Of a stretch of 64,000 nt of DNA, positions 39,969-41,224 are shown in pieces. The translations under genes and the position numbers were made by a program. The notes under the pieces are model-generated. The model saw only the letters and a program-made list of their open reading frames with translations. It had not been told where the DNA came from and ran no database searches. The DNA comes from Pyrinomonadaceae bacterium (GTDB lineage: Bacteria > Acidobacteriota > Blastocatellia > Pyrinomonadales > Pyrinomonadaceae). Each line of letters starts with the position of its first letter. Within the stretch, counting starts at the first letter, position 1. The stretch lies in NCBI GenBank assembly GCA_030841105.1, contig JAVEDE010000125.1:62001-126000 (forward strand), in the 5' to 3' direction.

Positions 39969-40304
39969 AAATGACGATTTCACGGTGTTAATTCATACTT
40001 TCACACTGCAAATTGATACTTTCACCATGCAGATCCATAGTTTCGCAGTGTAAATTGATACTTTCGCGCTGCAAATTTGAACTTTCGCGGTGCAGATTCA
40101 TAGTTTCACTCTGCAAATTCATACTTTCGCGGTGTAAATTTGCAGTTTCACTCTGCGGATTTGAACTTTCGCTTTGTAAATTGATACTTTCGCCCTGCGG
40201 ATTTGAACTTTCACACTGCAAAAAGACCCTTCCGCGCTGTGGATTCGTAATTTCGCGCTGCAAGTTCACCCTTTCGCCTTGCTGAAAGACACTCTCGCCC
40301 TCGC
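39969..40304. repeat. 16 tandem 21-bp units (minisatellite) between dacB and dapF
   Basis: Sixteen consecutive 21-bp units without a single insertion or deletion. Each has a fixed core ACTTTC(G/A)C-N2-3-TG(C/T)(A/G) and a variable half around (A/G)ATTnAnA. The 21-bp period keeps frames open on both strands, giving heptapeptide patterns (LILSRCK on plus, ESINLQ on minus). No ribosome site or initiation context supports a protein, so this is listed as DNA/RNA repeat. dapF follows 26 bp later. Confidence 0.92.
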
Positions 40305-40330
40305 GTCATGAGTTTTAACCTGTGCGGCTT

Positions 40331-41224
40331 ATGAATTTCGTCAAGTTTCACGGCTACGGCAACGACTACATCGTGTGCGAGGCGGGCGAGTTGGCGCGCG
40401 TCGTGGACGGGGGCGACGTGCCGGAGTTTGTGCGGCGCGTGTGCGACCGGCATTACGGCGTGGGCGGCGACGGCGTGGCGACGCTCGAACCGGCGTCGGC
40501 GACGGGCGACTCGGCGACGGCGGGCGACTCAGCGACGGCCGATTTCGTCTTACGCATCTTCAACCCGGACGGCAGCGAGGCGGCCATGTCGGGCAACGGC
40601 TCGCGCTCGGCCGCCGCGTTCCTCTACTTTCAAGGCTTGTGGCAGAGAGACGAACTGCGTCTGGCGACGAAGGCCGGAGTCAAACTCTACCGCCTGTTGG
40701 AACAGGACGGGCGCGGCCGTTACCGCTTCGCCGCAGAGATCGGCCGCCCCGCCTTCGACAGCGCGACCATCCCCATGCTGACGGGCGCGGCGCGCGAACA
40801 GGTCTCGGACTTCCCCTTGGAACTTGAGACGGGCGAGACGGTGCGGCTGACGGCCTTGCAGATGTGCAATCCGAACGCCTGCGTCTTCGTGGACGACTTC
40901 GACGCGGCGGACTGGCGGCGCATCGGTCGCGCCATCGAATCGCACGCGCAGTTTCCCCAGCGCACCAACGTCGAGTTCGTGCGCGTCCGCGACCGCGAGA
41001 CGATAGAGGTGCGCGTCTACGAGCGCGGCGTCGGCCCGACGCTCTCTTCGGGGACGGGCGCGTGCGCCGCGGCCGTCGCCTCCTGCCTGAACGGGTTGAC
41101 GGACAGGCGCGTCCGCGTCGAGATGGAGGGTGGCCGCCTCGAAGTCGAGTGGCGCGACGACGGCGAGGTGCTGCTGACGGGCGAGGCCGAAGTGATCTAT
41201 CGCGGTGAGTGGGTGAAGGGATGA
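40331..41224 (+). CDS. DapF-like protein with both catalytic cysteines replaced by serine
   Basis: 297 aa (family ~275). Fold motifs are intact: FVKFHGYGNDYIV, GGDGVATLEP, RIFNPDGSEAA, the MCNPNACVFVDD block, RTNVEFVRV, YERGVGPTL and GTGACAAAV. The first catalytic block reads MSGNGSRS instead of MCGNGxRC (Ser87 for Cys) and the second LSSGTGACAA instead of ACGTGA (Ser240 for Cys). In DapF these cysteines are the two proton-transfer bases that interconvert LL- and meso-diaminopimelate. A repetitive insert (GDSATAGDSATA, residues 59-70) is also present. It may use another mechanism or have another role. Confidence 0.88.
   Translation: MNFVKFHGYGNDYIVCEAGELARVVDGGDVPEFVRRVCDRHYGVGGDGVATLEPASATGDSATAGDSATADFVLRIFNPDGSEAAMSGNGSRSAAAFLYFQGLWQRDELRLATKAGVKLYRLLEQDGRGRYRFAAEIGRPAFDSATIPMLTGAAREQVSDFPLELETGETVRLTALQMCNPNACVFVDDFDAADWRRIGRAIESHAQFPQRTNVEFVRVRDRETIEVRVYERGVGPTLSSGTGACAAAVASCLNGLTDRRVRVEMEGGRLEVEWRDDGEVLLTGEAEVIYRGEWVKG

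What the first reader, a model, noticed from the sequence alone, without database searches (positions are those of the whole stretch)
40331..41224. DapF homologue lacking both catalytic cysteines
Ser87 and Ser240 replace the Cys pair that performs two-base epimerisation; all other motifs remain. Codons are TCG and TCG, so one-step change is not the explanation of a sequencing slip at both. Established: Cys-to-Ser in DapF abolishes normal epimerisation. So the protein either uses a new mechanism, acts on another substrate, or the cell makes meso-diaminopimelate in another way.
Basis: partly seen in the sequence, partly recalled or inferred. Interest (0 to 1): 0.72.

Follow-up and report, generated by a model that had tools for sequence, protein, structure and literature searches.

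The report
DAP epimerase with serines for cysteines
In most of the Acidobacteriota and a few other bacterial phyla, the only recognisable enzyme for the last step to meso-diaminopimelate (a building block of cell wall and lysine) has serine in both places where the textbook enzyme needs cysteine, while everything that grips the substrate is unchanged, so a supposedly indispensable thiol chemistry seems to have been done without on a very large scale.

Summary
It is no sequencing slip: all 70 family loci fetched are Ser/Ser, as are 50 of 60 other Acidobacteriota loci and homologues from Rokubacteria, Methylomirabilota, Aquificota, Dictyoglomota and some Bacillota. On a tree built without the two catalytic columns, Ser/Ser forms one side of a single branch (77 against 57 proteins, moderate support). 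The residues known to contact DAP are essentially invariant in the clade; the two Cys/Ser columns are the only perfect discriminators. It is the only DapF in the own genome and in complete single-contig relatives. Those genomes have the DAP pathway and MurE with the DAP-type motif; no Ddh was found in 19 genomes tested. Best reading: a working DAP epimerase using seryl hydroxyls, or a Ser-assisted mechanism, in the two-base geometry. Activity is untested. Partial precedent: natural Ser/Cys and Ser/Thr enzymes of the proline racemase superfamily (PMC4113996). I found no paper in the held library describing Ser/Ser DapF. New variant of a known kind.

The parts
40331..41224 (+). dapF homologue, 297 aa, Ser/Ser type (alternative GTG start at 40322)
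   Evidence: TIGR00652 7.6e-73; PF01678 3.1e-53; AF2 model pLDDT 95, best PDB match 9mro Z 39.1, rmsd 1.6 over 271 residues
40589..40591 (+). Ser87 codon TCG, position of catalytic Cys73 (H. influenzae) / Cys75 (Anabaena); just before helix 88-100
41048..41050 (+). Ser240 codon TCG, position of catalytic Cys217 / Cys224; just before helix 241-253
40559..40603 (+). N-terminal-half catalytic motif FNPDGSEAAMSGNGS (Asn78 distal DAP contact; Gly88, Asn89 amides for the carboxylate)
   Evidence: contacts from PMC12039745
41018..41071 (+). C-terminal-half catalytic motif YERGVGPTLSSGTGACAA (Glu231, Arg232 distal contacts; Gly241, Thr242 carboxylate contacts)
   Evidence: contacts from PMC12039745

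Best explanation
It is a functional LL-DAP to meso-DAP epimerase of an ancient Ser/Ser clade of DapF. DAP is bound as in ordinary DapF, in a closed, water-free pocket with the carboxylate held by the N-termini of two helices. The two residues that flank the alpha-carbon are seryl hydroxyls (Ser87 and Ser240) instead of a thiolate/thiol pair. One serine, made more basic or replaced in that role by a trapped hydroxide, would take the alpha-proton and the other would return one from the opposite face. Shown here: the residues, their universal conservation in the clade, the retained DAP contacts, the sole-copy status and the surrounding pathway. Inferred: that it epimerises DAP (about 0.8), and that the serine oxygens themselves are the acid and base (about 0.6).
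For: TIGR00652 equivalog far over its cut-off. AF2 model closest to the inhibitor-bound, closed Anabaena DapF 9mro, Z 39.1, rmsd 1.6 A. DAP-contact residues named in PMC12039745 kept in 78/78 Ser/Ser proteins, with N77 N/D (75/3) and T226 T/S (50/28); only the two catalytic columns separate Ser/Ser from Cys/Cys perfectly. One side of one branch, SH-aLRT 79, no reversal (two changes with two very divergent rows kept in). Sole PF01678 protein in the own genome, in 12 well-completed family members and 13 of 14 Ser/Ser carriers outside the family, and in single-contig genomes G244, G326 and G334. Purifying selection, dN/dS 0.16. The DAP pathway is present: lysC, dapB and dapD in the own genome and dapB-dapA-dapD-asd in G101; lysA in all 19 tested, with the canonical CESGD/CETGD motif in G120, G122, G132, G119 and G126. 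MurE has DNPR in all 30 genomes read. No Ddh over the cut-off in 19 genomes. Mutual replacement within the phylum: family f32 has Ser/Ser in G307 and G293 but Cys/Cys in its genus g69. Precedent: active Ser/Cys 4-hydroxyproline epimerase and Ser/Thr dehydratase in the proline racemase superfamily.
Against: No activity has been measured. Single Cys-to-Ser mutants of the related HisR lose most activity. No compensating basic residue is specific to the clade. The Asn at i+3 that positions the catalytic Ser in the proline racemase superfamily is missing here (S-G-N-G). One Ser/Ser carrier (G279) shows no dapB or dapD hit yet keeps the gene. A sub-clade with Lys before the first Ser coexists with a Cys/Cys homologue in some genomes.
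Confidence: 0.66

Rival explanations
1. It is a DAP epimerase, but the serines are not the bases: a bound water or hydroxide, or another residue, does the proton transfer and Ser only shapes the pocket.
For: A seryl oxygen is a poor base at neutral pH (general chemistry); position i+3 after Ser240 is relaxed from invariant Gly to Gly/Ser/Cys in the Ser/Ser clade.
Against: No residue able to act as a base is conserved only in the Ser/Ser clade; the superfamily has natural catalytic serines.
Confidence: 0.16
2. The protein racemises or eliminates on another substrate, and meso-DAP is made by an unknown enzyme.
For: Relatives with DapF folds do work on histidine or O-ureidoserine; the Lys-Ser sub-type coexists with Cys/Cys proteins in G131 and genus g61; G279 lacks dapB and dapD hits.
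Against: All distal DAP contacts (N78, N180, N213, E231, R232) are invariant in the clade, unlike in the divergent second homologue L301. Ser/Ser and Cys/Cys replace each other within one bacterial family.
Confidence: 0.1
3. The protein is catalytically dead or very slow, and these bacteria build walls with LL-DAP, as Streptomyces does.
For: DNPR in MurE may not tell LL- from meso-DAP (own knowledge, not tested).
Against: LysA needs meso-DAP (own knowledge) and is present in all 19 genomes tested, with a canonical motif in several; strong purifying selection on the whole protein.
Confidence: 0.06
4. Sequencing or assembly error in the window.
For: None.
Against: Ser/Ser in 70/70 family loci from independent assemblies, and across phyla.
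Confidence: 0.001

Closest known systems
Diaminopimelate epimerase DapF (TIGR00652, PF01678; e.g. Anabaena 9MRO, H. influenzae 1GQZ)
   Same: Fold, length, two-domain pseudo-symmetry, all DAP-contact residues, catalytic residues at the N-termini of two helices, genomes that hold the DAP/lysine pathway.
   Different: Both catalytic cysteines are serine, in a whole clade.
Ser/Cys 4-hydroxyproline 2-epimerase and Ser/Thr trans-3-hydroxyproline dehydratase of the proline racemase superfamily (PMC4113996)
   Same: Same fold superfamily; natural replacement of a catalytic Cys by a working Ser.
   Different: There at most one of the two is Ser in the epimerase; a different substrate; an Asn at i+3 positions that Ser, here it is Gly.
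Histidine racemases HisR (F. nucleatum) and CntK (S. aureus)
   Same: DapF fold; Cys-to-Ser mutants crystallised.
   Different: Natural enzymes are Cys/Cys, act on histidine, and are only 12-14% identical in structural alignment.

Membership tests
DapF, diaminopimelate epimerase (TIGR00652 / PF01678) | Profile score over the curated cut-off | tested here: met
   245.2 bits against 114.65; PF01678 179.4 against 34.7
DapF, diaminopimelate epimerase (TIGR00652 / PF01678) | DapF fold over the full length | tested here: met
   AF2 pLDDT 95; 9mro Z 39.1, rmsd 1.6 over 271 residues
DapF, diaminopimelate epimerase (TIGR00652 / PF01678) | DAP-binding residues (Anabaena N13, N66, G76, N77, N164, N197, E215, R216, G225, T226) | tested here: met
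   All ten present in the window protein; near-invariant in 78 Ser/Ser proteins
DapF, diaminopimelate epimerase (TIGR00652 / PF01678) | Catalytic Cys/Cys thiol-thiolate pair | tested here: not met
   Ser87/Ser240; Ser/Ser in the whole clade
DapF, diaminopimelate epimerase (TIGR00652 / PF01678) | Measured LL-/meso-DAP epimerase activity | not testable with these tools
   Needs a bench assay
Catalytic-Ser members of the proline racemase superfamily | Asn three residues after the catalytic Ser, positioning it | tested here: not met
   S87-G-N-G90: the i+3 residue is Gly; motif from PMC4113996
Histidine racemase HisR/CntK | Cys/Cys pair of the natural enzymes | tested here: not met
   Ser/Ser here, and the distal DAP contacts are retained

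The most novel reading that the evidence does not exclude
A phylum-scale lineage of cofactor-independent amino-acid epimerases performs two-base proton transfer at an alpha-carbon of pKa about 29 with two serine hydroxyls and no thiol at all, showing that the thiol-thiolate pair held to define this enzyme class is not required.
Probability: 0.5. Interest if true: 0.8.

Novelty: new variant of a known kind. Interest (0 to 1): 0.62.

Why it matters
Cofactor-free racemases are a model for how enzymes take a very weakly acidic proton, and the answer given has been a thiolate/thiol pair. A natural, apparently essential Ser/Ser lineage would make that assumption directly testable. It would also mean that thiol-reactive DapF inhibitors such as aziridino-DAP, which alkylates the catalytic Cys, would not be expected to act the same way on these organisms. 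The profile families name these proteins DapF without noting the missing cysteines.

Tried and rejected
Assembly error: rejected by 70/70 relatives. Second Cys/Cys DapF in the genome: none (the genome is 89% complete, but complete relatives also lack one). Ddh route: none over the cut-off in 19 genomes. Plant-type DapL: not over the cut-off in Pyrinomonadaceae, present in Rokubacteria; it would not replace DapF anyway. Gene-neighbour evidence: no lysine-operon linkage of the Ser/Ser gene in the flanks scanned by motif. Codon recoding of Ser as another residue: rejected, both Ser codon boxes are used. A Cys shifted to a neighbouring position: Cys at i+3 of site 240 occurs only in part of the family and not in the window protein. 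Plasmid relatives: none at 60% identity or more; the annotated hits are named dapF. Literature on Ser/Ser DapF or on murein of these groups: nothing in the held library; this is not proof of absence, as most subscription journals are missing.

Full report
OBSERVATION. The ORF at 40331-41224 (+) encodes 297 aa. It is a full-length DapF by TIGR00652 (245.2 bits, cut-off 114.65) and by two PF01678 halves. Ser87 and Ser240, both TCG, face the catalytic cysteines of solved DapFs in the alignments.

HOW WIDE IT IS. Among whole genomes of the same family, 108 of 119 have a match. The 70 loci read are all Ser/Ser. Relatives with names place the family as Pyrinomonadaceae/Blastocatellia, including Pyrinomonas methylaliphatogenes K22. 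Across the phylum, 60 further loci were read: 50 Ser/Ser and 10 Cys/Cys. Outside the phylum Ser/Ser occurs in Rokubacteria, Methylomirabilota, Aquificota, a Dictyoglomus MAG and two Bacillota MAGs, mostly with the motif AEKSGNGLR ... LASGSSSC. Mixed pairs also exist: Cys/Thr and Cys/Ser in two Spirochaetota MAGs (L029, L031) and Cys/Ser in L043.

ONE ORIGIN. In trees built without the two catalytic columns, Ser/Ser proteins are one side of a single branch once two very divergent Cys/Cys rows are left out (77 against 57 rows, SH-aLRT 79). With those two rows in, two changes are needed. There is no reversal to Cys inside the clade. The branch support is moderate, and the trees are unrooted, so which state came first is not settled.

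WHAT IS KEPT. The DAP contacts listed for Anabaena DapF (PMC12039745) were read on the tree alignment. N13, N66, N164, N197, E215, R216, G76 and G225 are invariant in 78 Ser/Ser rows; N77 is N in 75 and D in 3; T226 is T in 50 and S in 28. The two columns that separate Ser/Ser from Cys/Cys completely are the catalytic ones; the next best differences are mostly between hydrophobic residues. The AF2 model (pLDDT 95, pTM 0.93) puts both serines directly before helices 88-100 and 241-253. Its best PDB match is the inhibitor-bound, closed Anabaena enzyme 9mro (Z 39.1, rmsd 1.6).

IS IT THE WORKING EPIMERASE? It is the sole PF01678 protein in the own genome, in 12 well-completed family members and in 13 of 14 Ser/Ser carriers outside the family whose genomes were searched (the exception is G131), and in the single-contig genomes G244, G326 and G334. 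No Ddh over the cut-off was found in 19 genomes. The DAP pathway is there: in the own genome lysC, dapB and dapD lie together (L336), and in G101 dapB-dapA-dapD-asd (L337), confirmed by NCBIfam. LysA was found in 19 of 19 genomes. MurE carries DNPR in all 30 genomes read. dN/dS for the gene is about 0.16 between close relatives. Within family f32, genus g69 has Cys/Cys while G307 and G293 have Ser/Ser, one match each; such swapping is what one expects of proteins that do the same job.

MECHANISM. I commit to DAP epimerisation with Ser87 and Ser240 in the two-base positions. Superfamily precedent exists for a single catalytic Ser: Ser/Cys 4-hydroxyproline epimerase and Ser/Thr dehydratase (PMC4113996). 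The Asn at i+3 that positions that Ser there is absent here. Single Cys-to-Ser mutants of HisR are described as greatly reduced (PMC11602996). A trapped water or hydroxide as the real base cannot be excluded.

LOOSE ENDS. C. thermophilum is a known lysine auxotroph (PMC4376005). In genus g61 and in G131 the Lys-Ser sub-type sits beside a Cys/Cys homologue, so for that sub-type another or redundant role is possible. I searched only the held open-access library, so earlier mention elsewhere is possible.

Noticed in passing
L207-L217 and L220 (lysA loci of 12 Pyrinomonadaceae genomes, own genome L208:1438-2862): LysA of this family has C-D-(S/G)-G-D in place of the usual C-E-S-G-D substrate motif and scores low for lysA (about 300-347 bits, against 454-524 in five other Ser/Ser carriers). 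Whether this goes with a change of substrate or stereochemistry is unknown.
   Followed up: partly
window 39978-40263: Degenerate tandem array of 21/42/63-base units directly upstream of dapF, giving repetitive ORFs on both strands.
   Followed up: no
window 40496-40542: Short in-frame tandem repeat (ATGDSATAGDSATA) in DapF residues about 56-70, the least confident part of the model.
   Followed up: no
L029, L031, L043: DapF-like proteins with mixed pairs: Cys/Thr and Cys/Ser in Spirochaetota MAGs, Cys/Ser in a Firmicutes MAG; the Cys/Thr genome (G133) also has a Cys/Cys copy.
   Followed up: partly
L364, L365, L377 (family f31): Ser/Ser DapFs in which the Gly after the second Ser is also Ser (ASSTG or FSSTG), at a position whose amide binds the substrate carboxylate.
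   Followed up: no
L247, L355 (G279): Ser/Ser DapF and DNPR MurE kept in a genome without dapB or dapD hits; how its wall diamino acid is made is unexplained.
   Followed up: partly
L302, L303, L304, L292 (genus g61): Very divergent Cys/Cys DapF-like proteins (SFCSNGSR ... LCCGTG) in genomes that also carry, or in G160 lack, the Lys-Ser type.
   Followed up: partly
L092 and L113 (G023): One family genome carries two full-length, diverged Ser/Ser DapF genes on different contigs.
   Followed up: no
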